DNA of 46,341 nucleotides from Vreelandella jeotgali Hwa (GTDB taxonomy: Bacteria > Pseudomonadota > Gammaproteobacteria > Pseudomonadales > Halomonadaceae), in contig NZ_AMQY01000012.1 in the NCBI RefSeq assembly GCF_000334215.1, positions 1 through 46,341 of the forward strand, read 5' to 3'. The position numbers were made by a program, and so were the translations under genes. Below the pieces are notes generated by a model. That model saw only the letters and a list, made by a program, of their open reading frames with translations, made no database searches and was not told where the DNA came from. Numbering within the stretch: the stretch's first letter is position 1; each line of letters starts with the position of its first letter. Shown in pieces: positions 22,142-37,515 of this stretch.

Positions 22142-22149
22142 GTTTTAAA
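22142..22149. repeat. Target site duplication, left copy (GTTTTAAA)
   Basis: The 8 bp directly before the left transposon tip are GTTTTAAA, identical to the 8 bp directly after the right tip (30071-30078). ISL3-family elements make 8-bp duplications, usually in AT-rich targets, which fits this site. Confidence 0.93.
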
Positions 22150-22173
22150 GGCTATGTGCAATAAGTGGTTGTA
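22150..22173 (+). repeat. Left terminal inverted repeat
   Basis: It starts GGCTATGTGCAATA and continues with GGTTG at 22167-22171, matching about 19 of the first 24 bases of the right end. The transposase stop codon (22198-22200) lies about 25 nt inside it. Confidence 0.9.
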
Positions 22174-22197
22174 ACACTCATTACAAACCGTCCGCAA

Positions 22198-23472
22198 TTA
22201 TTCCCCATTTTCATCCGCCAAGGTTGGAATGTAGGGGCCATACTCCACATGTTTCTGCGGCGTGGTGGTTGAATCTGGCAGCACTGATCCTCTGCCAACC
22301 TTTCTTGCATGATCTGCATAGAGTGCCCGAGCGCGGATCATGTCGTAGCTGTATCCTCGCCCCAATCGGTTCGCCATTTTGACGATCCCGTTCAGACCTT
22401 CTGTGTAGGCATTCGTGATTCTTGCCGGCGCATCCCAATAGGCAAAGATGTCGGAATAGTGGTTATGGACTGTGCGCGCCAGGGCATGAAACCTGGGCCA
22501 TTTGCTTTCCGGCAGCGTGTTTTCCCATGCCTCGAATGCCTGCATGGCGGACGCTTTATCAGGCTCGTCATATATCTGGTAGAACAGTTCCTTGAAGTCG
22601 TATGCCTCGGCAAGTGCTGGCATGTTCTGGCGTAACAGCGCCATGTCCTGCTGTTCATCCACAGTCAACGCGTGTGGTCGTTTGAGGGTGAGCCAGCGGA
22701 GCGACTTCTTCAATCTCAGGCGCTCCTTGCGACCGAGCTGCGCCTGATGTTGCTTGCGCTCATGCTCAAGCGCCTCTGACGCCATTTTGACCACATGAAA
22801 CTTGTCGATAACTAGCTTGGCATTGGGCAAGTAAGGCCCAAAAGACCGCTTGAAGGGGCGCCACATGTCGGTACACACCCACTCCACGTTCTCGCTGTCG
22901 GGCAGCTTCCGGAAAAACGGCTTCATATGATTTTGCGTTCGCTTTTCCAGCATGTCGTAAATGCTGTTGGTGGCCAGATTGGTAATGATGCAACGGTAGC
23001 TGCCCGCCAGATTCAACTCATCAATGCCCATGATGACAGGCGTTTCATACCGCACTGTGGTATCCAGTTCGTCGATCAAATCCTGCGCGATGTTCTTGAC
23101 CGTATTGACGGCCAGCCCGGTTTCGTCTGCCAAACCATGAAAGGTGCGCGAGAGACAGCGTTCACGGATGGCCCCTACCAGACGCTTTGTGACCCGGCGT
23201 TTCTCGTCGAGGAACGCCAACTCCGGCATGAGCGTCTTGCCACAGTCCGCGCAGCGGTAGCGCGGCCGGTCGATTTTCAGCCGGACGGGCATCATCTGTT
23301 GCGGCGTATCCGCAAACATGATTTGTCGATGGCCATGGCGGTAAAGCGTATTGCCACATGAGGGGCAGGCCGGCGGCTGCGCGGCATCGACTTGTGCATC
23401 AATAATAATGACGCCTTCGTCGTATTGCAGGTCAACAGGTTGGACGCCGGGCAGATTCAGTAAATCAAGCAT
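22198..23472 (-). CDS. tnpA: ISL3 family transposase
   Basis: A 424-residue transposase. The N-terminus has a zinc ribbon, CPSC at about 36-39 and CADC at about 72-75, for end recognition. A DDE catalytic core follows: Asp in MGIDELN (about 151), Asp in VIDKFHVVK (about 221) and Glu in YTEGLNGIVK (about 359). All three acidic residues are present, so it may be active. ATG 23472 begins MLDLLNLPGV, as in ISL3 relatives; this start lies inside the end of hsdR (8-nt overlap), making the transposase the fourth cistron of the restriction operon. An in-frame start further upstream would overlap hsdR more. Confidence 0.93.
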   Translation of the reverse strand: MLDLLNLPGVQPVDLQYDEGVIIIDAQVDAAQPPACPSCGNTLYRHGHRQIMFADTPQQMMPVRLKIDRPRYRCADCGKTLMPELAFLDEKRRVTKRLVGAIRERCLSRTFHGLADETGLAVNTVKNIAQDLIDELDTTVRYETPVIMGIDELNLAGSYRCIITNLATNSIYDMLEKRTQNHMKPFFRKLPDSENVEWVCTDMWRPFKRSFGPYLPNAKLVIDKFHVVKMASEALEHERKQHQAQLGRKERLRLKKSLRWLTLKRPHALTVDEQQDMALLRQNMPALAEAYDFKELFYQIYDEPDKASAMQAFEAWENTLPESKWPRFHALARTVHNHYSDIFAYWDAPARITNAYTEGLNGIVKMANRLGRGYSYDMIRARALYADHARKVGRGSVLPDSTTTPQKHVEYGPYIPTLADENGE

Positions 23473-26400
23473 CCCGGTCGTCCAGATCGATGTCTTCCCC
23501 TTTGGCCAGCAGGTCATATACCAAGTTGGTCAAGGCAGTCATCGCCTGCGTATCCGATTTGAGCAGTTGTGTGGCCAAGTCCTGGTGGGAGTTCAAAGCA
23601 CGTACAACACCCTGTTGTACCGTGCTCGACAGATTCCCTTTCAATGCTTGCTCGCGCGTGTTGTTTTCCACCTGGGCCATGACGACATCGTTTTCCCTGG
23701 AGATGCCCGCAATTTGATTGACGAAAGTAGCCCGGTCTTTAATCGGCGTGGCCTCGCCGAAAATTCGATTAAGGCGGTCAATGATCTCTTGCAGGTAATT
23801 TGCCTTGTCAGCCCGGCCACCACCGCCAGCACCGCCTGGCTGCAATACAGGTGCCTCGTCATCATCTTCGCCGGCGTCTTCCTTGTCCTTGATGTCGAAC
23901 CCAGTCAACACCAAACCGGATAGGTCGATGGTTTCGGGCGGCACGTCGTCGAGTCGCTTGGCAAGCAACTTGGCAAAGGCTGCGAAGTTCTCCAGCTCCG
24001 GGTCGCCGAAGTCGATCAACTGGGCGACATAGGCATACGTTCGGCCAAACCGGGATAATCCTTTCTTGAACGTCATCAAATTGGCGACCTGCTCGGCATA
24101 CTCATTACGCTGGTGATCGGCGGATTTCATGCCTGCGTCGTCGCCGCTGTGATGCGCCTTTTCATAGGCATCTTCCCACGTCGCCACCGCGTCACGCAGC
24201 ATTTTCAACTGTTCATTGAAAAGTCGTGTGGGTCGTTCCGTCGCCGCATACATGGCTTTGTGTTGCGGTTCACTGGCCGATGTGATGTCTCGCAGCGTCT
24301 TGAAGCGCGCCTGCTTGAAGGCGTCGAGGTCGGATTCGTCGTACAGATCGTGGTCATCGAGCTGCTTGGCGATGTCGTACACGACATTGAGGTCTTGCAC
24401 CTGTTCGATCTCGGCACCGTCGTCGTACTTGGCAAACGCTGCCCGCACGCTTTCCGGTTCGTTCACGAAATCAATGACGAAGGTTTCGTCCTTGCCGGGC
24501 GCGGTACGATTCAGTCGTGACAGTGTTTGCACGATCTCGACATCGTTGGCGATCTTCTTGTCCACGTACATCGCAACCAGCTTCGGCTGGTCGAAGCCGG
24601 TCTGGAACTTGTCGGCCACCAGCATGACCCGATACTCGGGCCGCTCGAACGCGTTACGCAAATCCTGGCCGGCCACGGCCGGGTTCAGGTTATTTTCGTT
24701 GAACTCGGCGTCTGCATCTATGGCCAACGATCCGTCGTCCTCGGCATGTTGAAGCTGCCTGCCGGTCAACTTGCCGGAAATCGCCACCAGGGAATGAATA
24801 TGCCGGTGTTCGGAGTGCCCTTCGATGTACTTGTCGAAGTGCATCTTGTAACGCACCGCAGCGGCTCGGGAGCTGGTCACGACCATGGCCTTGGCTTTGC
24901 CATCCAGCCGGTGGGCCACGTTGCGGCTGAAATGCTCGATGATGAACTGCACCTTCTGCGCAATGATGGTCGGGTGCAGGTCGATCCACTGCGCCAATGC
25001 CCGACGAGCCGCCTTGTTGCCGACACGTTTGCTGTCCAGCAACTGCGTGGACAGGTTCACGGCGGTTTCGTAAGGGGTATAGCCGGTCAGCACATCCAGG
25101 ATGAAGCCTTCCTCGATGGCCTGACGCATGGGGTAGCGATGAAACGACACCGGCAGATTATCGTCACTGGCGCGGCGACCATCCTGCGTGCGTCCGAACA
25201 GCATCATCGTCGAGTGCTTGGGCGTGGCCGTGAAAGCGAAATAGCTGATGTTGTCGGGCCGGTGCCGGGCTTGTTGCAAGCGTTCCAGCAACTGCTCCAC
25301 GTCCATGTTGGCCATGTCGTCCTGGCTGGACAACGACAAAGCAGCTTGCAGCTTGGCGGCGTCCGTACCGGTCTGCGAGTTGTGCGCCTCGTCGATGATG
25401 ACCGCGAAACGGCTGTCCTTGAGCCGGTCATCCGTGACCATGGCTTCCATCGCATACGGGAAGGTTTGCAGCGTCACGACCACAATCGGCGTGCCTTGGG
25501 TCAGGGCCTTCGCCAGTTTCTTGCTCTTGGATTCGCTACCCTTGCTGCGATCAATCGCGGCAATCATGCCGGATTGGTGGTCAATCTGTTTGACCGCATC
25601 CTGGAGCTGGCTGTCGAGCACCGTGCGGTCGGTGACGATGACCACGCTGTTGAACTTCGGGGTGCCATCGTCGTGCCGCAGCTTGACTAGATCATGCGCC
25701 GTCCAGGCAATCGTGCTGGTCTTGCCGGAACCGGCGCTGTGTTCGCACAGGTAATTCATACCTGCGCCGTTGACATCGGCGTCGGCGATCATCTTGTTGA
25801 CGGCATCCCACTGGTGGAAGCGTGGGAAGATGAGCGTTTCCTTCTTCTTCCAATTGCCTTTCAGGTCAACAACGTCCTTTTTCTCCAGATACACGAAGCT
25901 GTGAAAGACACGCAGCCAGGCATCCCGTTGGCAAACCTGTTCCCAGAAATAGGCCACCGGGTACTCGCCATCGTCACGGGCCGGGTTCCCGGCATGGCCG
26001 TCGTTGCCCTGATTGAACGGCAGGAAGGTGGTATTGGCTCCATCCAGTTTCGTGGTCATTTGAATGTCCGACTCGGACACCGCGAAATGCACTACTGCGC
26101 CGCGCTGGAAGGTCAGCAGCGGTTCGACCCGCTTGGTCTTGGGGTCTTGGGGTAGCCGGTCTTCCTTGTACTGCTGAACCGCCGCATCCGCGGACTGCGT
26201 GAAGTCGGTCTTGACCTCGACTGTGGCCACCGGCAGGCCGTTGATAAAGAACACCAGGTCGATGGCCAGGTTGCGGGGCGGGTGGTATTGAAGCTGGGGC
26301 ACCACCCGCAGGATATTGGCCTCATACCGGTGCAACACGTCCTCATTGCGCTTGTCCTCGGGCGCCGCTTCGGATAAGTCAATGTGGCCACAACCGGCGA

Positions 26401-26686
26401 TCTTGAAGCCTCGGCGCAACGTCTGCACTGTGCTGGTGTTCTTCTGATCCAGATGTTGGGCCAGACGCGACATGAGCGCGCCTTGCGGGCTGTCCGGGTA
26501 GTCCTCGCACAGTTTGTCCCACTTGTCCGGCTGGGTCGCCTTGAGCCAGGCCATCAGGTCGGCTGGATAGAGGGCGGTTTCGGTGTCGTACTCGGACGTG
26601 GTGCCGACCTTCCAGCCTTGCTGTTCGAGCTGGCTGACGATGTAGTTCTCGAAGTGCTTTTCCCGGTGGGCGGTGTCGCCGTTCAT
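23465..26686 (-). CDS. hsdR: Type I restriction enzyme, R subunit (motor and nuclease)
   Basis: A 1,073-residue HsdR. The N-terminal nuclease domain has the PD-(D/E)xK pattern: LAIDLVFFINGLP followed by TVEVK near residue 157. The helicase motor has Walker A SAGSGKTST (about 320), DEAH in VIIDEAHNS (about 429) and TATPK (about 487), then a motif VI region QTLSRLNRTAPGK. A helical C-terminal domain joins the M2S core. The subunit translocates DNA past an unmethylated site and cuts at a distance. The start overlaps the hsdS stop (ATGA, 26683-26686). No frameshift or internal stop is seen. Confidence 0.95.
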   Translation of the reverse strand: MNGDTAHREKHFENYIVSQLEQQGWKVGTTSEYDTETALYPADLMAWLKATQPDKWDKLCEDYPDSPQGALMSRLAQHLDQKNTSTVQTLRRGFKIAGCGHIDLSEAAPEDKRNEDVLHRYEANILRVVPQLQYHPPRNLAIDLVFFINGLPVATVEVKTDFTQSADAAVQQYKEDRLPQDPKTKRVEPLLTFQRGAVVHFAVSESDIQMTTKLDGANTTFLPFNQGNDGHAGNPARDDGEYPVAYFWEQVCQRDAWLRVFHSFVYLEKKDVVDLKGNWKKKETLIFPRFHQWDAVNKMIADADVNGAGMNYLCEHSAGSGKTSTIAWTAHDLVKLRHDDGTPKFNSVVIVTDRTVLDSQLQDAVKQIDHQSGMIAAIDRSKGSESKSKKLAKALTQGTPIVVVTLQTFPYAMEAMVTDDRLKDSRFAVIIDEAHNSQTGTDAAKLQAALSLSSQDDMANMDVEQLLERLQQARHRPDNISYFAFTATPKHSTMMLFGRTQDGRRASDDNLPVSFHRYPMRQAIEEGFILDVLTGYTPYETAVNLSTQLLDSKRVGNKAARRALAQWIDLHPTIIAQKVQFIIEHFSRNVAHRLDGKAKAMVVTSSRAAAVRYKMHFDKYIEGHSEHRHIHSLVAISGKLTGRQLQHAEDDGSLAIDADAEFNENNLNPAVAGQDLRNAFERPEYRVMLVADKFQTGFDQPKLVAMYVDKKIANDVEIVQTLSRLNRTAPGKDETFVIDFVNEPESVRAAFAKYDDGAEIEQVQDLNVVYDIAKQLDDHDLYDESDLDAFKQARFKTLRDITSASEPQHKAMYAATERPTRLFNEQLKMLRDAVATWEDAYEKAHHSGDDAGMKSADHQRNEYAEQVANLMTFKKGLSRFGRTYAYVAQLIDFGDPELENFAAFAKLLAKRLDDVPPETIDLSGLVLTGFDIKDKEDAGEDDDEAPVLQPGGAGGGGRADKANYLQEIIDRLNRIFGEATPIKDRATFVNQIAGISRENDVVMAQVENNTREQALKGNLSSTVQQGVVRALNSHQDLATQLLKSDTQAMTALTNLVYDLLAKGEDIDLDDRDA

Positions 26687-27918
26687 ACGGCCTCCGTTTG
26701 TTGGTCGCGCACGTCAATCTTGCCGGTGACGGCAGCGGTTATCAGGGCCGAGCGTTTTTCTTTGAGTAATCGAATAGATCGTTTTTCTAGCTCTTTGAAG
26801 CGATATTCCATTTCTACCAATCGGGCGATTTCGTTTTGTAATGCCATCGGCGGGATGGGGATTCTTTTCTTCGCCAGATCGTCGATGTTTAATGGGCGGT
26901 TCCTCCCTGCCGACCCGTGGGAGCAATCGTCGAGAAGAAAATGCCCCTCATGCGAAGTGAAGTACGCCCATAAATATCGCGTGTTAAGAATATCGGGCTT
27001 TCCGCGATATACATGGTAGCGATGGGACACAATGCAGCCATCTTCATTTGAAGTAACCAATGCTACGGCTCCTTCCCAAGCGAATTGTCCACTTAAAATT
27101 AAATCGTCTTTTTCAACCCAAAGGAATGAGGATGATCCAAGCTCATCGCCTGCTGCTTCGGGCTTCTGGAATATGCCCCGTCCCCAGTTATAAAGCCCGA
27201 GACGTATATAGGACTGGTCATCGACTCGGCAAACAGGCCTGTCAATGCGAACCACATTCCACTGGATCCGATCGCGATATGTTTCGGGGTGAACATGTGC
27301 TTTGTGAACCAACGCCTGGCGCTTTTCCTTGAGCAGTTCGATGAAGCGGGTTTTCTTTTCGATCAGGGTGTCGATGCGGGTGGTTTCGCGGTCAATCTCG
27401 TTTGCGATCCTGATCTGCTCATTCTTAGAGGGAACAAGAATGGGAAATACTCGAAAATGATCGGGGTCTAAATCCCATTGTCCAACTCTGATCCCCTTTG
27501 AAATCGAAATGTATCCAGCGATGTAAGGAAGGCTTCTCAATAAATAGTGTGCGTATTTGCCATACATGCCGCCGACTGGCTCATATACGAAATATGCTGG
27601 GCTAACGATACCGCGTATTTCACTGACAGCGATTGATCCCTGCCAAGTCTTCATTTTGTTCGTCACCAAAAAACCCGGCTTTATAAGCTGATACGGAGAC
27701 AGGTCTAATGAAGCTCTATTCCGGTTATCATCTCGCGAGTGTTTGAATACAACTCCATGATCGCGGTAGACAGACAATAGCGTTTCTTCCGCGTACCCGG
27801 TCAATTTTATCGGGCTATACAAAGTCCAAAATGGTTTTATGTCCCACTCCTCGGGGATTGAATCAACCAACTCAACCCCGGAATCCTTGTACTCGGGATA
27901 CGCCTTGTAACGACTCAT
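26683..27918 (-). CDS. hsdS: Type I restriction enzyme, S (specificity) subunit
   Basis: A 411-residue HsdS with two target recognition domains (about 20-170 and 215-370), each followed by a helical spacer: EIDRETTRIDTLIEKKTRF near 180-200 and EMEYRFKELEKRSIRLLKEK near 375-395. The two half-sites are set by these domains. Base composition is mosaic: both recognition domains are AT-richer than the spacer and than hsdM/hsdR, the usual sign of domain shuffling. After the first spacer the text (ALVHKAHVHPETYRDRIQW) departs from the usual linker, suggesting a recombination joint. A good site, GGAGGTGAC, precedes ATG 27918, which overlaps the hsdM stop. Confidence 0.93.
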   Translation of the reverse strand: MSRYKAYPEYKDSGVELVDSIPEEWDIKPFWTLYSPIKLTGYAEETLLSVYRDHGVVFKHSRDDNRNRASLDLSPYQLIKPGFLVTNKMKTWQGSIAVSEIRGIVSPAYFVYEPVGGMYGKYAHYLLRSLPYIAGYISISKGIRVGQWDLDPDHFRVFPILVPSKNEQIRIANEIDRETTRIDTLIEKKTRFIELLKEKRQALVHKAHVHPETYRDRIQWNVVRIDRPVCRVDDQSYIRLGLYNWGRGIFQKPEAAGDELGSSSFLWVEKDDLILSGQFAWEGAVALVTSNEDGCIVSHRYHVYRGKPDILNTRYLWAYFTSHEGHFLLDDCSHGSAGRNRPLNIDDLAKKRIPIPPMALQNEIARLVEMEYRFKELEKRSIRLLKEKRSALITAAVTGKIDVRDQQTEAV

Positions 27919-29939
27919 TCCGTCACCTCCGCCAGTAGATCGGCAATCTCGCCTTCTACTTTGTCCAAATCGGCGTCGATTTCCTCCAGCGATCTCGGCG
28001 GCACGTACTGGTAGAAGTAGCGGTTGAAGTTGATCTCGTAGCCCACGCGGCCTGTCTTTTCGTCGCGTTTGTCCGTGTAGGATTCGTCAATCCACGCATC
28101 AGGCACATGAGGTAGCACTTCGCGGGCGAAGTAGTCCTCGATGGCCTCGTCCAGCGGCACGTTTTCGTAGTCCGTCAGGTCGCTGTCGGACAGGACGTCG
28201 CCTTTGCTGTCGGTGACCGGCGTGCCACCGGGGTCACGCACACCGAATGCCTTGCGCATGGCGTTGATGAACGGTTTGGTTGCCTTGACCGAACCTGTGG
28301 CGACGGCGCTTTCCGTGGCCTTGGCAAATTCCTCGGCCCAGCCGTAGCGGTACGTTTTGCCCAGATGTTCCAACAAAACGCTGTGCCATGTATCCTGTTG
28401 ATCTTCGGGCAGCTTCTGCCACTGCTTGTTTTGCGTCAAGGCGTCCAACCCGGACTCCGTAATTTCCAGGTGCATCCGCAGCGGGCGCAGCACCTTGATC
28501 CGGCGATAGCCGAAGTGCTGGTAGTCGTAGACGCGGCTGTGTTCGCCTTCCTCGAAGGCCGCGTGGATGTCGGCAATGGTGCGCATTTGTTCGCTGCTGA
28601 TCCGGCGACGCTTGTTGCCTTCGTTTTTCATCGGCACCCACTGGTCGGTGGCGTCGATCAACTGCACCTTGCCTTGGCGAGATTCGGCCTTCTTGGTTGT
28701 CAGAATCCACAGATAGGTGCCGATCCCGGTGCGGAAGAACAGCTCTGTCGGCAGCGCCACAATGGCCTCGACAAGATCGTTTTCCAGCAGGTAGCGCCGG
28801 ATTTCGGATTCACCAGAGTTGGCGCCACCATTGAACAATGGGGAACCCGACAGCACGATGGCCGCTCGGCCACCGCCGTTCTCGGGTGTTTCTAGCTTGT
28901 CGGCCAGGTGCATGAGAAACAGCATCGAGCCGTCGCTGACCGACGGCAGACCCGGCCCGAAGCGCCCGGCGTAGCCTTTCTCATCGTGTTCGGATGTGAC
29001 TGCTTCCTTGTCCTTGTCCCATTTCTTGCCGAACGGCGGATTAGCCAAGCCATAGTGGAATTTTTGGCCGGCGTAGGCATCGCGGGACAGCGTGCTCGAC
29101 GGCCCGGCGATGTTCTGGCTCAAATCCCGGCTGGGATCGGACGGGTGCTGGCGCAGCAGCATGCTGGTCAGGGCAACGGCATGGGTTTCCGGTTCCAGCT
29201 CCTGACCGTGCGGTATCAGTACCGGCGGCACCTTCTCTGTGTTGCCGTAGTCGGCCACATACGCCATGGCATCGGACAAGAAACCGCCCGTGCCACAAGT
29301 GGGATCGTACAACGTGCGAATCAAACCGGGCTTGGCCTCAAACAACTCTGCATCAGGATCGAGCACCAAAGTTGTCGCTAGATGCACCACGTCACGCGGC
29401 GTCATGAAATCCTCAGCGCCTTCGTTGACTTCGGCGCCAAAGCGACGAATCAAGTGCTCGTACAGGGTGCTCATCACCCGATCCGGCACGGCCTCCGGAT
29501 GCAAGTCGATGTTGGCGAAGTTCTGCGTGATTCGGTAAAGCAGATTGGCCTTGTCCAGTCGAACAAGCGTGTTGCTGAAATCGAACTGCTCGAAGATTAC
29601 ACGGGCGTTTTCCGAGAACCGAGCAACGTAGTCCTGGAGATTCTGCCGGGTCTTGGTGCTGCCCAACGTGGCCAGCGAATAGTTGGAGGTGTTGTAGAAC
29701 GGATACTGGCTGGTTTGTCGCAGGATCAGATCGGTGTCGATGCCACTGTCCTTATGCTCGGCGTATTTCTCACGCACTTGCTTTCGGGTCGGTTCCAGGA
29801 CACATTCCAAACGCCGAAGCAGTGTAAACGGCAAGATGATCTTGCCGAAGTCGGTGTGTTTGAAATCCCCCCACAGGTCGTCAGCGTTTTTCCAGCACTC
29901 GGCTGCCAGTGAGGCGCCAAAACTCTTCCCGTTTGCCAT
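27915..29939 (-). CDS. hsdM: Type I restriction enzyme, M (DNA adenine methyltransferase) subunit
   Basis: A 674-residue HsdM. The SAM-binding motif is DPTCGTGGFL at about 213-222 and the catalytic NPPF (ANPPFGKKW) is at about 301, the N6-adenine type. Together with HsdS it methylates the recognition site and protects host DNA. The frame is open to 29969, but ATG 29939 (MANGKSFGASL) has GGAG 6 nt upstream and fits the family. It is the first gene of the transposon operon, 131 bp inside the right tip; its ribosome-binding region lies beside the innermost copy of the terminal motif. Confidence 0.94.
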   Translation of the reverse strand: MANGKSFGASLAAECWKNADDLWGDFKHTDFGKIILPFTLLRRLECVLEPTRKQVREKYAEHKDSGIDTDLILRQTSQYPFYNTSNYSLATLGSTKTRQNLQDYVARFSENARVIFEQFDFSNTLVRLDKANLLYRITQNFANIDLHPEAVPDRVMSTLYEHLIRRFGAEVNEGAEDFMTPRDVVHLATTLVLDPDAELFEAKPGLIRTLYDPTCGTGGFLSDAMAYVADYGNTEKVPPVLIPHGQELEPETHAVALTSMLLRQHPSDPSRDLSQNIAGPSSTLSRDAYAGQKFHYGLANPPFGKKWDKDKEAVTSEHDEKGYAGRFGPGLPSVSDGSMLFLMHLADKLETPENGGGRAAIVLSGSPLFNGGANSGESEIRRYLLENDLVEAIVALPTELFFRTGIGTYLWILTTKKAESRQGKVQLIDATDQWVPMKNEGNKRRRISSEQMRTIADIHAAFEEGEHSRVYDYQHFGYRRIKVLRPLRMHLEITESGLDALTQNKQWQKLPEDQQDTWHSVLLEHLGKTYRYGWAEEFAKATESAVATGSVKATKPFINAMRKAFGVRDPGGTPVTDSKGDVLSDSDLTDYENVPLDEAIEDYFAREVLPHVPDAWIDESYTDKRDEKTGRVGYEINFNRYFYQYVPPRSLEEIDADLDKVEGEIADLLAEVTE

Positions 29940-29948
29940 GCAGTTCTC

Positions 29949-30070
29949 CAACCGGTTATTGCACGGCACAGCCTAGCACACTGCTATAGCTTCAACCATA
30001 TATTGCACATGACGGACATATTGAGCGAAAGCGAGCGCTCTAGATGTTCAACCGGATATTGCACATAGCC
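29949..30070 (-). repeat. Right terminal inverted repeat plus two subterminal copies
   Basis: CAACCGGATATTGCACATAG at 30049 begins the terminal repeat. Two related copies occur further in: CAACCATATATTGCACATGA from 29993 and CAACCGGTTATTGCAC at 29949-29964, at start-to-start distances of 56 and 44 nt. All share CAACC-N5-TTGCAC (ATTGCAC in each). The inner copy is about 10 nt from the hsdM start. These are probable transposase-binding sites and also lie where the hsdM promoter must be. Confidence 0.8.
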
Positions 30071-30078
30071 GTTTTAAA
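30071..30078. repeat. Target site duplication, right copy (GTTTTAAA)
   Basis: GTTTTAAA directly follows the right transposon tip and is identical to 22142-22149. Removing 22150-30078 would rebuild an uninterrupted tRNA-Asn to prc intergenic region. Confidence 0.93.
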
Positions 30079-32475: not shown

Positions 32476-33789
32476 ATGTCCGAAGGCCGCGATGCCGATG
32501 CCATTAGCCGTCTGCAGGATTTTCTGCGTGATTCCCCCACGCCGTGGCACGCCACCCGCAACATGGCCGCGCGGCTGGAAAGCGCCGGCTTTCAGCGGCT
32601 GGAAGAAATCCGCGACTGGGCGTTGACGCCGGGCGGGCGCTACTACGTGACGCGCAACGACTCCTCGATCATTGCCTTCCAGCTGCCGGCTGCCTCGCTG
32701 GCATCGCTGCGCATGATCGGCGCGCATACCGACAGTCCCGGCCTGCACGTCAAGCCCAACGCCACCGAGCACGCCGCCGGCTGGCTGCAGCTGGGCGTGC
32801 AGGTCTACGGCGGCGCGCTGCTGGCGCCGTGGTTTGACCGTGATCTGGGGCTGGCCGGGCGCGTCCACGTACGCCACGCCGACGGTCGTCTGGAAAGCCG
32901 GCTGATGAACGTCGATCGGCCCGTGGCGACTATTCCCAACCTGGCCATTCATCTTGATCGTGAGGCCAACAAGGGGCGGGCGATCAACCCGCAGACGCAA
33001 ATGGCGCCGGTGCTGATGCAAGGCGAGAGCGCCACACTGACGTCGCTGGTGCAGACCTGGCTGGCCCGGGAGCACGGCCTGAAAGACGTTGAGGTGGTGG
33101 ATTTCGAACTGGCGTTCTATGACGTTCAGCCGCCCGCGCTGGTCGGCGTTGAACAGGAGCTGGTGGCCAGCGCGCGCCTGGATAATTTGCTGTCGTGCTT
33201 CATGGGCGTGGAAGCCCTGCTCGAGTGTGACGGCGAGCAGGGGGCCCTGCTGGTAGCCAACGACCACGAAGAAGTCGGCAGCGCCAGCGCCTGCGGCGCC
33301 CAGGGGCCGTTTCTGGGAGACGTGTTGCGGCGTCTCAACGAACAGGTGGGCGGCGGTACCGAAGCGTCGTTGATCCAGCTGATCCAGTCATCGTGCATGA
33401 TCTCCTGCGATAACGCCCACGCGCTGCATCCCAACTTCATGGACAAGCACGATGCCAACCACGGCCCGGCCATCAACCAGGGGCCGGTGATCAAGATCAA
33501 CGCCAGCCAGCGCTACGCCACCAACAGCGCCACCGGCGCGTTGTTCCGCGATGTCTGCCGCGACGCCGATGTGCCGGTGCAAGCGTTTGTCACCCGCGCC
33601 GACATGGGCTGTGGCAGCACCATCGGGCCGATCACCGCCACCGAGGTGGGCGTACCCACGCTCGACGTCGGCGTGCCCCAGTGGGCCATGCACTCCATCC
33701 GCGAAACCGCCGGCGCCCGGGATATCCACCATCTGACCCGGGCGCTGCGGACATTTCTCGATCGGCCGTCGCTTTCGCTGACTCGCTGA
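32476..33789 (+). CDS. apeB: M18 family aminopeptidase
   Basis: A 437-residue zinc aminopeptidase of family M18. Metal-binding and catalytic residues appear in order: His in IGAHTDSPG (about 83), Asp in LDNLLSC (about 235), the Glu pair in NDHEEVGS (about 265), and the late His in WAMHSIRE (about 405). M18 enzymes remove acidic or neutral N-terminal residues in the cytoplasm. AGGGAG stands about 7 nt before ATG 32476. A bidirectional terminator follows 10 nt after the stop. Confidence 0.94.
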   Translation: MSEGRDADAISRLQDFLRDSPTPWHATRNMAARLESAGFQRLEEIRDWALTPGGRYYVTRNDSSIIAFQLPAASLASLRMIGAHTDSPGLHVKPNATEHAAGWLQLGVQVYGGALLAPWFDRDLGLAGRVHVRHADGRLESRLMNVDRPVATIPNLAIHLDREANKGRAINPQTQMAPVLMQGESATLTSLVQTWLAREHGLKDVEVVDFELAFYDVQPPALVGVEQELVASARLDNLLSCFMGVEALLECDGEQGALLVANDHEEVGSASACGAQGPFLGDVLRRLNEQVGGGTEASLIQLIQSSCMISCDNAHALHPNFMDKHDANHGPAINQGPVIKINASQRYATNSATGALFRDVCRDADVPVQAFVTRADMGCGSTIGPITATEVGVPTLDVGVPQWAMHSIRETAGARDIHHLTRALRTFLDRPSLSLTR

Positions 33790-33799
33790 TCGCCCACGC

Positions 33800-33829
33800 A
33801 AAAAAGCCCGCTCAAGGGCGGGCTTTTTT
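33800..33829. terminator. Bidirectional Rho-independent terminator
   Basis: AAAAAAGCCCGC and GCGGGCTTTTTT pair around TCAAGG, with A6 on one side and T6 on the other. It serves apeB on the plus strand and could stop tRNA-Met transcripts on the minus strand. Confidence 0.92.
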
Positions 33830-33841
33830 CGGTAATCGGGT

Positions 33842-33918
33842 TGGTAGCTACGCCCTGATTCGAACAGGGGACCCCATCATTATGAGTGATGTGCTCTAAC
33901 CAACTGAGCTACGTAGCC
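33842..33918 (-). tRNA. tRNA-Met (CAT), elongator
   Basis: 77 nt with encoded CCA. The D arm and anticodon arm (CACTCATAATG) match the elongator methionine tRNA of gammaproteobacteria. The first acceptor pair is a G1-U72 wobble rather than G-C. It lies between ychF and the terminator, transcribed leftward. Confidence 0.95.
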
Positions 33919-33977
33919 ATTCAACGGAGGCGGATGCTACCCGGCGGGGGTAGCAACGTCAAGTATGCTGTACTGGC

Positions 33978-35069
33978 TTAGACGTTGAAACGGAAGTGGA
34001 TGACGTCGCCGTCCTTGACGATGTAGTCCTTGCCTTCCAGGCGCCACTTGCCGGCATCCTTGGCACCCTGCTCGCCGTTCAGGCTGACAAAGTCGTTGTA
34101 GGCAACCACTTCAGCGCGAATAAAGCCCTTCTGGAAGTCCGAGTGAATGACGCCTGCGGCTTCCGGCGCCGATGCGCCTTCGCGTACCGTCCAGGCGCGG
34201 ACCTCCTTGACCCCGGCGGTGAAGTAGGTCTGCAGGCCCAGCAGTCCGTAGCCGGCGCGGATCACGCGGTCGAGGCCCGGCTCCTCCATGCCCATTTCGT
34301 CGAGGAACATGGCGCGTTCCTCATCGTCGAGCTCGGCCACTTCGGCTTCGATCTGGTTGCAGACGGGTACCACGACCGCGCCTTCCTCGGCGGCAATCTC
34401 GTTGACCACGTCGAGATAGGGATTATTGTCGAAGCCGTCTTCGTTGACGTTGGCGATGTACATGGTGGGCTTCAGCGTCAAAAAGCCGAAGCTCTTGACC
34501 TGATGCTGCTCCTCGTCATCCAGCCCGGCGCTGCGCAGCGGCTGACCCTCGGCCAGGTGTGGCTGGACCCTGTCCAACACAGCCTTGGTGGCCACGGCAT
34601 CCTTGTCGCCGCCTTTCACCGCGCGTGCCAGCCGCTGGATGGCTTTTTCCACGGTATCCAGATCGGCCAGCGCCAGTTCCATGTTGATGATTTCGATATC
34701 GGCGCGAGGGTCGACCTGGTTGGAGACGTGAATCACGTTATCGTTGTCAAAGCAGCGCACAACGTGGGCGATCGCCTGGGTCTCGCGGATATTGGCGAGA
34801 AACTTGTTGCCCAGCCCCTCGCCCCTGGAAGCGCCGGCCACCAGCCCGGCAATATCGACAAACTCCATGGTGGTCGGCAGCACCTTCTCCGGCTTGACGA
34901 TGGCCGAGAGCGCGTCCAGCCGGGGGTCGGGCATGGGCACAATGCCGACGTTGGGCTCGATGGTGCAGAAGGGGAAGTTTTCGGCGTCGATGCCTGTCTT
35001 GGTCAGCGCGTTGAAAAGCGTGGACTTGCCGACGTTGGGCAGGCCGACAATACCGCAGTTGAAACCCAT
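33978..35069 (-). CDS. ychF: Ribosome-associated ATPase/GTPase YchF
   Basis: A 363-residue member of the Obg-related family, the same length as E. coli YchF. The P-loop is GLPNVGKST at about 8-16. The usual NKxD motif is replaced by a form around NVNE, in keeping with the ATP preference of YchF/Ola1. A coiled-coil insertion (about 130-200) and a C-terminal TGS domain follow. It binds ribosomes and affects stress responses. It follows pth by 66 bp, the conserved pth-ychF order. Confidence 0.95.
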
Positions 35070-35135
35070 AACGATGATTCCTGAAAACTGATGTGAAGTG
35101 CGACGCGGGCCAGGACGGTGCCGGTCAGGGGCGCG

Positions 35136-35717
35136 TCATTTTAAGCTGTGCAGCCGGTTCATGGCCTGAGCCCAGTCGCCGCCGACGGCAAGCGGCAGGG
35201 TAGTCAGACAGGCGTCCAGCGCCGTGTCGATGGCGGACTGCTCGGTCTTGCCCGGCCGGTTGAGGACGTAGTTGACGACCCGGTTGGCATCCCCGGGGTG
35301 GCCAATGCCGATGCGCAGGCGGTGAAAATCCTTGCGGTTGCCCAGCGCGCTGACGGTGTCGCGCAGACCGTTGTGGCCGCCGTGGCCGCCGCCGGTCTTG
35401 TAGCGCGCCTGGCCGGCGGGCAGGTCAAGCTCGTCGTGGGCGACCAGCAGCTGGTCGGGGCTGAGCTTGAAGAATTGGCACAGGGCCGCCACCGACGCGC
35501 CGCTACGATTCATGAAGGTGGTGGGGTTGAGCAGGTGCAGTTCGACGCCGCCCAGCCGGGTTTTGGCATGGAGGCCGAAAAACTTCTTTTCCGGGCGCAG
35601 CTCGGTATGCATGTCCCGCGCCACCGCGTCGACCAGCCAGGCACCGGCGTTGTGTCGCGTGGCGGCGTATTTGGGCCCGGGGTTGCCCAGGCCGATAAGC
35701 GCCATAACCTGGCTCAT
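35136..35717 (-). CDS. pth: Peptidyl-tRNA hydrolase
   Basis: A 193-residue enzyme (E. coli 194). It frees tRNA from peptides dropped by the ribosome. GLGNPGPKYAATRHNAG holds the substrate Asn and catalytic His; the catalytic Asp is in VAHDELDLPAG. ATG 35717 has a near-perfect site, GGAGGTGA, 5 nt upstream. That site is immediately preceded on the mRNA by the U-run of a terminator hairpin, so pth may depend on readthrough from rplY or on a promoter close to the hairpin. Confidence 0.96.
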   Translation of the reverse strand: MSQVMALIGLGNPGPKYAATRHNAGAWLVDAVARDMHTELRPEKKFFGLHAKTRLGGVELHLLNPTTFMNRSGASVAALCQFFKLSPDQLLVAHDELDLPAGQARYKTGGGHGGHNGLRDTVSALGNRKDFHRLRIGIGHPGDANRVVNYVLNRPGKTEQSAIDTALDACLTTLPLAVGGDWAQAMNRLHSLK

Positions 35718-35729
35718 TTTGTCACCTCC

Positions 35730-35758
35730 AAAAAAAATCAAGCGCCGGAGCGCTTGAT
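35730..35758 (-). terminator. Terminator between rplY and pth
   Basis: ATCAAGCGC (35737-35745) and GCGCTTGAT (35750-35758) form a perfect 9-bp stem with a CGGA loop. On the minus strand it is followed by eight U (A8 at 35730-35737). The U-run leads straight into the pth ribosome-binding site. Confidence 0.88.
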
Positions 35759-35769
35759 CGTAACATGGT

Positions 35770-35795
35770 GCGGGCCGTGCGAGGGCACGGCCCGC
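35770..35795 (-). terminator. Strong GC hairpin after rplY
   Basis: GCGGGCCGTGC and GCACGGCCCGC make a perfect 11-bp stem with a GAGG loop, 14 nt after the rplY stop. It has no U-run but stands in tandem with the terminator at 35730-35758. Confidence 0.6.
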
Positions 35796-35809
35796 GGGAG
35801 CATGCCGGG

Positions 35810-36460
35810 TTACTCGGCGCTGTTGTCTTCGCCTTCGCCGGCGTCTTCGGCGTCGTCATCGTCCTTGTCACTGCCGCGAACCTTCTGCTTGGCAATGTTG
35901 ACGACGGCGGCGTTGTGATCCTCGCCGTGGGACAGCTCAACCGAGCGAACGCCCTGCGGCATACGGATATCGGACAGGTGCAGCGTGGTACCCACTTCCA
36001 CGTTGGCAATGTCGATTTCCAGATAGTCCGGCAGATCTTTGGGCAGCGAGTAGACCTGGACTTCAACGGCCAGAGCATGGAGCTCGCCGTCCTGGTCCTT
36101 GATGCCCACGCACTGATCTTCACCGACGACGTGCAGCGGCACATTGATGGTGATTTCCTGATTGGCGTCTACGCGCATGAAATCCGCGTGGGTCACCAGC
36201 GGCTTGAAGGGGTGGCGCTGCAGGTCACGCACGACAACCTGCTCTTTGGTGCCTTCGATGTTGAGATCAACCACCGAGGAGAAGAAGGCCTCGTCTTCAA
36301 TCGCCTTGTAGAAAACGGTCTTTTCCACGGCGATGGACTGCGGGGCCTTGTCGCCGCCGTAAACCACGGCGGGAATCTGTTCGTTTGCACGACGCAGGCG
36401 GCGGCTCGCACCTTTCCCCAGGTCGGAACGAACGCTGGCGTTAAGGATAAAATCGGACAT
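35810..36460 (-). CDS. rplY: 50S ribosomal protein L25/general stress protein Ctc
   Basis: A 216-residue long-form L25 (Ctc type). The N-terminal part ([27 protein letters not shown]) binds 5S rRNA; the C-terminal beta domain ends in an acidic tail rich in Asp and Glu. The short E. coli L25 lacks this second domain. ATG 36460 has AGAGG about 9 nt upstream. It lies between prs and pth, the usual order. The acidic tail fits a salt-tolerant host, though this is weak evidence. Confidence 0.95.
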
Positions 36461-36487
36461 GAAATGTGCCTCTTGGGTTAAAGTCGG

Positions 36488-36523
36488 AAAGCGCCGCCGC
36501 CCGCGACCAGGCAACGGCGCTTT
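36488..36523 (-). promoter_or_regulatory. 9-bp inverted repeat in the rplY leader
   Basis: AAAGCGCCG (36488-36496) and CGGCGCTTT (36515-36523) are perfect complements with an 18-nt loop, 28 nt before the rplY start. The hairpin may end prs transcripts weakly or control rplY, since ribosomal protein leaders are often structured. Confidence 0.5.
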
Positions 36524-36573
36524 CAAAAGCGGCAGGGGCGCCGGGAGCGCTTGTCCGCTACGGGGTCAGGCAA

Positions 36574-37515
36574 TCAGTGAAACATTGCGCTGACGGATTC
36601 TTCGTTGCTGACACGGCGGATCGCTTCGGCGATCAGGCCGGCCACGCTCAGCTGGCGGATGCGCCCGCTGCGGCGTGCGGTTTCGGACAGCGGGATCGTA
36701 TCGGCCACGACGACTTCGTCGAGAACCGAGCCGGTAATGTTGTCGACCGCCGGGCCGGAGAGAATCGCATGGGTGGCGTAGGCCACGACATTGGTGGCGC
36801 CGCGCTCCTTCAGCGCTTCGCCGGCCTTGCACAGGGTGCCGGCGGTATCGATCATGTCGTCGACCACCACGCAGGTGCGGTCCTGGATGTCGCCGATGAT
36901 GTGCATCACCTGCGCCTGATTGGCCTGGGGGCGACGCTTGTCGATGATGGCAAGGTCCACGTTCAGCGCCTTGGCAATGGCCCGGGCGCGCACCACGCCG
37001 CCCACATCGGGAGACACGACGACGAGATCGCGATAGTTCTGGCGCTCGATATCGTCGAGGAGGATCGGCGAGCCGTAGACGTTGTCGACCGGCACGTCGA
37101 AGAATCCCTGGATCTGGTCGGCGTGCAGGTCCATGGTCATGACCCGGTCAACACCGGCCTTGACCATCATGTCGGCGACTACCTTGGCGGAAATCGGCAC
37201 GCGCGATGAGCGCACCCGGCGATCCTGGCGGGCATAGCCGAAATACGGCAGAACGGCGGTAATGCGCGCTGCCGACGCCCGACGCAGGGCGTCAACCATC
37301 AGGATCATCTCCATCAGGTTTTCATTGGTCGGGGCACAGGTGGACTGGAGGATGAAGACATCCTTGCCGCGTACGTTTTCGTTGATTTCGACTGCGGTCT
37401 CACCGTCGCTGAACTGACCAACCGTGGCATTGCCCATGCGGCTGTCCAGACTATCGGCAATCTTGTGAGCGAGCTCGGGATTGGCGTTCCCGGCGAAAAC
37501 CATCAATTTTGACAC
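36574..37515 (-). CDS. prs: Ribose-phosphate pyrophosphokinase
   Basis: A 313-residue PRPP synthase (E. coli 315). It makes phosphoribosyl pyrophosphate from ribose 5-phosphate and ATP. Motifs include FGYARQDRR in the ATP site, [13 protein letters not shown], and the PRPP loop [13 protein letters not shown] at about 215-227. The start is GTG 37515 (reading [15 protein letters not shown]), with AAAGG about 10 nt upstream. It directly follows tRNA-Gln and ispE, the conserved order. Confidence 0.97.

What the first reader, a model, noticed from the sequence alone, without database searches (positions are those of the whole stretch)
22142..30078. A complete type I restriction-modification system carried as cargo in a single ISL3-type transposon
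hsdM, hsdS and hsdR sit with an ISL3-type transposase between matched terminal inverted repeats (14 identical tip bases, GGCTATGTGCAATA), and the whole 7,921-bp unit is flanked by a perfect 8-bp duplication, GTTTTAAA. The usual reading would be an IS that happened to land beside hsdR; the repeats instead place the restriction genes inside the element. Type I systems are normally spread by islands, plasmids or integrative elements. I know of ISL3 elements with passenger genes but do not recall one whose cargo is a full HsdRMS set.
Basis: partly seen in the sequence, partly recalled or inferred. Interest (0 to 1): 0.93.

Follow-up and report, generated by a model that had tools for sequence, protein, structure and literature searches.

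The report
Jumping gene carrying a restriction system
A bacterial transposon here holds a complete set of predicted type I restriction-modification genes between its two ends and likely moves them as one unit; elements of this kind are already known (ISKpn25 is one), and extra copies of its end sequence at the start of the operon suggest that its transposase may also control the restriction genes.

Summary
A 7,921-bp unit (22150-30070) holds hsdM, hsdS, hsdR and an ISL3-family transposase between inverted repeats (14 identical tip bases, 19 of 22 in all) and is flanked by a perfect 8-bp duplication, GTTTTAAA. The placement of the restriction genes inside the element is also right. The claim of novelty is not: ISKpn25 (8,154 bp) has the same gene order and the same kind of ends, one paper calls its hsdM a passenger gene, and it has been captured jumping in laboratory E. 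coli with 8-bp duplications. The window holds a diverged new member (transposase about 64% identical to ISKpn25's).

Across relatives: of 44 loci with a transposase at least 54% identical, 43 have hsdR beside it and one contig is cut. Transposase, HsdR and HsdM distances track each other (rho 0.94-0.97), while HsdS is swapped. Base-precise empty sites exist for two E. coli copies. The hsdM-side end carries two further copies of the end motif in 25 of 26 ends examined, as a rule one at the -35 region and one at the ribosome-binding site of hsdM. I infer that the transposase binds them and controls the restriction operon; this is untested.

The parts
22142..22149 (.). target duplication, copy 1 (GTTTTAAA)
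22150..22171 (+). terminal inverted repeat, transposase side
22198..23472 (-). ISL3-family transposase (ORF open to 23517; a start at 23472 gives an 8-nt overlap with the hsdR stop, as in 28 of 49 rows, window included)
23465..26686 (-). hsdR, type I restriction subunit (HSDR_N, Walker A GSGKT, DEAH)
26683..27918 (-). hsdS, specificity subunit, two halves
27915..29939 (-). hsdM, N6-adenine methyltransferase subunit (NPPF); ORF open to GTG 29969, likely start ATG 29939
29946..29949 (-). ribosome-binding site GGAG of hsdM (predicted), its first G being the last G of internal copy 3
29949..29963 (-). internal copy 3 of the end motif TGCA-N6-GGTTG (predicted operator)
29970..29978 (-). extended -10-like TGCTAGGCT (predicted; not called by the consensus scan)
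29990..29995 (-). -35-like TTGAAG overlapping internal copy 2 (predicted)
29993..30007 (-). internal copy 2 of the end motif TGCA-N6-GGTTG (predicted operator)
30049..30070 (-). terminal inverted repeat, hsdM side
30071..30078 (.). target duplication, copy 2 (GTTTTAAA)

Best explanation
This is a complete ISL3-family transposon of the ISKpn25 kind whose transposase gene is the last of four head-to-tail genes hsdM-hsdS-hsdR-transposase, and it likely moves the whole restriction system as one unit by transposition. Shown by sequence: one pair of ends, one perfect 8-bp duplication, gene borders that overlap by 4, 4 and (with the likely transposase start) 8 nt, and the same unit at other sites in other bacteria with different duplications. 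Inferred: the four genes form one operon; the DDE transposase binds the 22-bp ends and inserts the unit into AT-rich targets, duplicating 8 bp. Inferred: two further copies of the end motif, at the -35-like region and at the ribosome-binding site of hsdM, let the transposase bind there and damp its own operon, so that jumping and restriction rise and fall together. Inferred: HsdM, HsdS and HsdR form an ordinary type I methylase and restriction enzyme that protects the host and favours keeping the element, while exchange of hsdS changes the recognised sequence.
For: Unit, ends and duplication. Family assignment. 43 of 44 loci with transposase at least 54% identical have hsdR next to it, the other contig being cut inside the transposase gene; 0 of 35 loci at 39% or less match the window's Hsd proteins at 1e-5 in the DNA held. 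14 of 47 loci have both ends and a perfect duplication, plus ISKpn25, 4 of 5 E. coli records and 2 of 4 close viral contigs. Base-precise empty sites for two E. coli chromosomal copies. The hsd-linked transposases are one side of a branch, SH-aLRT 100 in a quick tree. Distance correlations in 30 elements: tnp-hsdR 0.97, tnp-hsdM 0.94, tnp-hsdS 0.34. ISKpn25 was captured moving in laboratory E. coli with 8-bp duplications (PMC8768599, passages). Internal copies: at least one in 26 of 26 left ends and two in 25 of 26, 44-47 bp apart. Columns of 24 ends anchored on copy 2: 1.76 and 2.00 bits in its two core blocks (partly by construction), 1.3-1.4 in those of copy 3, 0.25-0.40 between. Leaders match their own element's end (mean 14.7 of 22) better than the ends of distant ISL3 elements (11.5) or shuffles (11.2), and the reverse holds for the distant elements (15.9 against 11.4 and 11.2).
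Against: The window's genome has one copy only and no base-precise empty site was found for it, so movement of this very copy is inferred. The consensus scan does not call the window's own promoter: the -35 to -10 spacing is 14, not 16-18. NCBIfam hsdR and hsdM models match below their cut-offs. Binding of the transposase to the internal copies is untested; they could instead help transposition. Not every element fits fully: L023 has one internal copy, the -35-like TTGA is missing in L040, and GGAG directly on the motif is missing in 4 of 25 leaders printed (L009, L034, L037, L040). One unlinked hsdR (L128) nests inside the linked ones and an exclusive clade is rejected, p-AU 0.007.
Confidence: 0.88

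Rival explanations
1. An ordinary ISL3 insertion sequence landed beside a resident hsdRMS operon, and the far repeat is a coincidence.
For: An IS next to hsd genes is common (general knowledge).
Against: Matching ends and a perfect 8-bp duplication enclose the same genes at 14 of 47 loci, with different duplications; ISKpn25 is bounded the same way at 8,154 bp; whole-unit empty sites; the exact end motif occurs nowhere in the body of the window's unit between the left-end region and the end of the transposase gene.
Confidence: 0.02
2. The unit is a transposon, but the internal copies of the end motif serve transposition (extra transposase binding sites that make the two ends unequal) and not control of the operon.
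For: In the 17 transposase-side ends printed, the full motif is seen at the tip only (read by eye); subterminal transposase sites are known in other transposons (recalled).
Against: Copies 2 and 3 keep a nearly fixed phase to the -35-like region (TTGA in 24 of 25 elements with two internal copies) and to the ribosome-binding site (GGAG on the motif in 21 of 25 leaders printed). Distant ISL3 elements with other passengers repeat their own, different end motif in the leader, 4 of 13 with the same 46-bp spacing (L055, L056, L059, L079, the second and last being near-copies).
Confidence: 0.3
3. The copy in the window is a dead relic: a former transposon fixed between tRNA-Asn and prc, retained for restriction alone.
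For: Single copy in the genome; no close copy elsewhere (nearest transposase 72-73%).
Against: All four frames are open; ends and duplication are intact. The transposase shares 31 charged, Cys, His, Trp or Gly residues with at least 95% of 79 aligned ISL3 rows, but that list names only columns where the window agrees, so it is weak evidence.
Confidence: 0.15

Closest known systems
ISKpn25 (ISL3 family, Klebsiella plasmids; name from the records' annotation and papers)
   Same: Gene order hsdM-hsdS-hsdR-transposase, ends GGCTATTTGCATTC.., 8-bp AT-rich duplications, same triple repeat at the hsdM end
   Different: 8,154 bp against 7,921; transposase 64%, HsdR 69%, HsdM 67%, HsdS 27% identical; annotated transposase start lies just behind the hsdR stop instead of overlapping it; plasmid-borne in the record used; ISKpn25 is seen to move
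ISSm4-like element (name from the record's annotation) on a Serratia plasmid, L123
   Same: Same gene set, ends and triple repeat
   Different: A DUF1016/YhcG-type PDDEXK nuclease gene between hsdM and hsdS; 9,109 bp; no matching duplication at this copy
Tn7-like transposons with restriction-modification cargo (PMC8649781, passages)
   Same: A transposon that carries restriction-modification genes
   Different: Tn7-like transposition genes and ends (recalled); diverse cargo, whereas here one type I set is tied to one transposase lineage
Chromosomal type I systems without transposase (L146, L148, L149)
   Same: HsdR 56-61%, HsdM 55-64% identical
   Different: No exact end motif in the 400 bp upstream of hsdM; no ISL3 transposase match in the DNA held

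Membership tests
ISL3 insertion sequence family | ISL3-type DDE transposase with zinc ribbon and HTH | tested here: met
   PF01610, PF14690, PF13542 and NF033550 all above cut-off
ISL3 insertion sequence family | Inverted repeats beginning GG and an 8-bp target duplication (rule recalled) | tested here: met
   One search finds the same at 13 of 35 distant ISL3 loci, but that search demanded GG tips and at least 7 of 8 matching flank bases
ISL3 insertion sequence family | Transposition activity | not testable with these tools
   Inferred from relatives only
ISKpn25-like group (ISL3 with hsd passenger genes) | hsdM-hsdS-hsdR-transposase in one direction between one pair of ends | tested here: met
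ISKpn25-like group (ISL3 with hsd passenger genes) | Transposase in the same clade | tested here: met
   46 hsd-linked rows on one side of a branch against 34 others, SH-aLRT 100, quick tree, rooted for drawing only
Type I restriction-modification system | HsdM with N6-methyltransferase domain and NPPF, HsdS with two target-recognition halves, HsdR with HSDR_N and helicase motifs | tested here: met
   Pfam's Methylase_S matches one half of HsdS only, PADLOC specificity models match both
Type I restriction-modification system | NCBIfam cut-offs for hsdR (TIGR00348) and hsdM (TIGR00497); a naming threshold, not part of the definition | tested here: not met
   157.9 against 284.55 bits and 69.4 against 242.75; Pfam cut-offs are met and PADLOC models match, so I file it as a diverged type I set on those
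Type I restriction-modification system | Methylation and restriction of a bipartite site | not testable with these tools
   no methylome or phage data
Composite transposon (two IS copies around cargo) | Two IS copies | tested here: not met
   One transposase gene in the genome and one pair of ends

The most novel reading that the evidence does not exclude
The transposase is the repressor of the restriction system it carries. Copies of the transposon's own end, which change in step with the ends as transposases diverge, are built into the -35 region and the ribosome-binding site of hsdM; on entering a new cell the operon would be open, methylation would come first, and rising transposase would then shut down both jumping and restriction. 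The same left-end control module would be the general design by which ISL3 elements carry operons (type I and type II restriction, P-type ATPase, Fic).
Probability: 0.5. Interest if true: 0.72.

Novelty: new member of a known kind. Interest (0 to 1): 0.5.

Why it matters
How a mobile restriction system enters a naive cell without cutting its chromosome, and how such systems spread, is an old question. Here one transposase lineage has stayed with one hsdM-hsdR pair while the specificity subunit changes, so specificity change, host range and mobility can be followed on one object. If the internal end copies are transposase operators, mobility and immunity share one switch, and this can be tested with one protein and one 130-bp fragment in a laboratory strain.

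Tried and rejected
Stray IS beside hsdR: rejected. Composite transposon: rejected. Base-precise empty site at the window's own locus: tried by aligning two relatives and scanning five for the end tip; too diverged. Other copies of the transposase in the own genome: none. DNA-level copies in phage records: none; phage records hold only ISL3 transposases under 60% identity. No solved structure by sequence. No structure prediction was run; the family is clear from profiles. Exclusive clade of linked HsdR: rejected by the AU test, because one unlinked system (L128) falls inside; read as likely loss of the transposase. Counting copies in one E. coli record by the genome search was not possible because the record is not held.

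Possible bias: one of the six peptide patterns (residues 1-8) lies in DNA that also encodes the end of hsdR and could favour hsdR-linked loci. The unbiased sample has only 2 of 369 genomes with a close transposase (the window's genome is one of them; the other gives the same HsdR as L042), both hsd-linked. In the wider sample, at least four HsdR relatives of 57-62% identity are in genomes without a close transposase, so HsdR of this group also lives outside the transposon. Members outside Pseudomonadota (L018, L026, L027, L037, L044) are single contigs, four of the five from metagenome bins, so binning error is possible.
Full report
What is there. From 22150 to 30070 lies a 7,921-bp unit with ends GGCTATGTGCAATAAGTGGTTG and GGCTATGTGCAATATCCGGTTG (14 identical tip bases, 19 of 22 in all) and a perfect 8-bp duplication GTTTTAAA outside both ends. 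It holds four genes on the - strand: hsdM, hsdS, hsdR and an ISL3-family transposase. Neighbouring genes overlap by 4, 4 and 8 nt if the transposase starts at ATG 23472. A start codon stands at exactly that 8-nt overlap in 28 of 49 rows with hsdR beside the transposase (window included; L042 and L150 are the same element); in the others it lies elsewhere, often within a few bases behind the hsdR stop, and in L027 and L035 far behind the end of the hsdR match. The unit sits between three tRNA-Asn genes and prc.

Is it a mobile unit? A scan of species genomes with the transposase gave 79 loci. Of the 44 loci at 54% identity or more, 43 have hsdR beside it and one contig (L041) is cut inside the transposase gene; none of the 35 loci at 39% or less matches the window's Hsd proteins in the DNA held. 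Of 47 loci tested for ends (the 44, two plasmids and the window), 14 have both ends and a perfect 8-bp duplication; 4 more (L008 with a worn left end, L011, L020, L081) have both ends and 3-6 of 8 matching flank bases; the others lack a recognisable end or are cut by the contig. ISKpn25 on a Klebsiella plasmid gives ends 8,154 bp apart with GAAATTAG on both sides, which is the length stated in print and so checks the method; the ISSm4-like copy has both ends but no matching duplication. Of five E. coli records fetched, four have perfect duplications and one (L154) does not. Two of these were compared with other strains: the sites in opgB and yidE are empty there, with one copy of the 8 bp, to the base. 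One E. coli strain has five chromosomal places and one plasmid place that match the hsdR-transposase part. Two of four close copies in viral contigs are complete with duplications; the other two are cut by the contig, and the hsdM match of L159 is in two pieces. The duplications are AT-rich, 0.84 over 19 of them.

Is it old and coherent? The hsd-linked transposases form one side of a branch with SH-aLRT 100 (46 against 34 rows, quick tree). In 30 elements with all four genes well covered (of 35 with an hsdS found), distances of transposase and HsdR correlate at 0.97, transposase and HsdM at 0.94, transposase and HsdS at 0.34. In the 14 closest pairs, with HsdR 95-99% identical, HsdS is 29-67% identical. 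ISKpn25 and the TOK-001 copy share 98.5% of HsdR and 41.8% of HsdS. So one chassis has moved as a unit while specificity has been exchanged. Against full exclusivity, one HsdR without a transposase (L128) falls inside the linked group and an exclusive clade is rejected (p-AU 0.007), and other HsdR of the same wider group have no transposase. Some members carry more genes between hsdM and hsdR. Thirty such ORFs from 17 loci were scanned: 16 match Pfam, among them GmrSD, RhuM, Abi_2, DUF1016/YhcG nuclease, Schlafen-type AlbA, PIN and Fic domains, and 14 match nothing. In the window only hsdS lies there.

The left end. Twenty-six left ends were examined. All have at least one internal copy of the end motif TGCA-N6-GGTTG (at 8 or 9 of its 9 fixed bases) and 25 have two, 44-47 bp apart. 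The first internal copy starts 45-67 bp behind the tip copy in 25; in L039 the copies lie behind a long insert with masked bases. The exception, L023, has one internal copy whose right side is that of copy 3, as if the DNA between two copies had been deleted. GGTTGA of copy 2 supplies the -35-like TTGA in 24 of the 25 elements with two internal copies (not L040). GGTTGGAG of copy 3 supplies the GGAG before the hsdM ATG in 21 of 25 leaders printed (not L009, L034, L037, L040; L039 not printed). With 24 ends anchored on copy 2 (L023 and L039 left out), its two core blocks hold 1.76 and 2.00 bits, which is high partly by construction; those of copy 3 hold 1.3-1.4, and the stretch between 0.25-0.40. 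In 13 distant ISL3 elements with other passenger genes, 12 repeat their own, different end motif in the leader (14-18 of 22; L075 scores 11; shuffles average 11.2 and reach 16), 4 of them with the same 46-bp spacing; three pairs of these elements are near-copies of each other or close kin. Leaders match their own ends better than foreign ends or shuffles in both groups (14.7 against 11.5 and 11.2; 15.9 against 11.4 and 11.2). Three unlinked hsd systems and the second type I system of the window's genome have no exact motif upstream of hsdM (4 of 4). The plain reading is that the protein that knows the end, the transposase, also knows the internal copies. That it represses the operon is an inference. 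In the window itself the promoter-like boxes are weak by consensus (spacing 14, extended -10).

What is known. I saw passages of ten papers, no whole text. PMC8796155 gives ISKpn25 as 8,154 bp with four ORFs of 684, 438, 1085 and 422 residues in this order; its labels for the first and last look swapped, since the fourth ORF is the transposase in the record's annotation. PMC5142620 calls hsdM one of ISKpn25's passenger genes. PMC8768599 lists seven ISKpn25 insertions captured on an entrapment plasmid in laboratory E. coli, 8,154 bp each, with 8-bp duplications. PMC12217459 reports higher ISKpn25 copy number after colistin exposure. So the kind is known and the window holds a new member. I did not find in print the wider clade or the internal end copies at the promoter. 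The searches were made, in an open-licence library only; two searches listed 20 of 49 and 20 of 105 papers, and most listed papers were seen as titles and abstract starts only. ISfinder itself was not at hand.

Verdict. Observation confirmed; placement inside the transposon right; novelty claim wrong at the level of kind. What remains of interest is the tight transposase-hsd partnership, the exchange of hsdS on a fixed chassis, and a concrete, testable model in which the transposase controls the restriction operon.

Noticed in passing
L151 (G000 contig C17, about 33735-36854): The same genome has a second type I-like system, HsdR 44% identical to the window's, with HsdS and HsdM beside it and no exact end motif upstream of hsdM.
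   Followed up: partly
L059:1670-6028: A distant ISL3 element (transposase 38% identical) of 4,359 bp with a perfect 8-bp duplication carries a type II restriction pair (Eco57I-like methylase and BsuBI/PstI-like endonuclease) in the same slot.
   Followed up: partly
L023:3367-3500: Copies 2 and 3 of the end motif seem to have recombined, removing the DNA between them that holds the -10 region in relatives; the same element's hsdM match is in two pieces.
   Followed up: partly
L159, L162: Complete ISKpn25-like units with perfect duplications lie in contigs classed as viral in IMG/VR, perhaps prophages.
   Followed up: partly
L153 (E. coli Nord8 chromosome): Five chromosomal places and one plasmid place match the hsdR-transposase part of ISKpn25, so the unit can likely multiply within one genome; one of them was fetched whole, with a perfect duplication.
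   Followed up: partly
L146:7317-14542: A chromosomal hsd system without transposase whose HsdR (61%) nests inside the transposon-borne group, perhaps a settled descendant (same HsdR as L128).
   Followed up: partly
L095: In one relative the tRNA-Asn to prc gap is about 1.3 kb instead of 0.2-0.7 kb, so something else may have inserted there.
   Followed up: no
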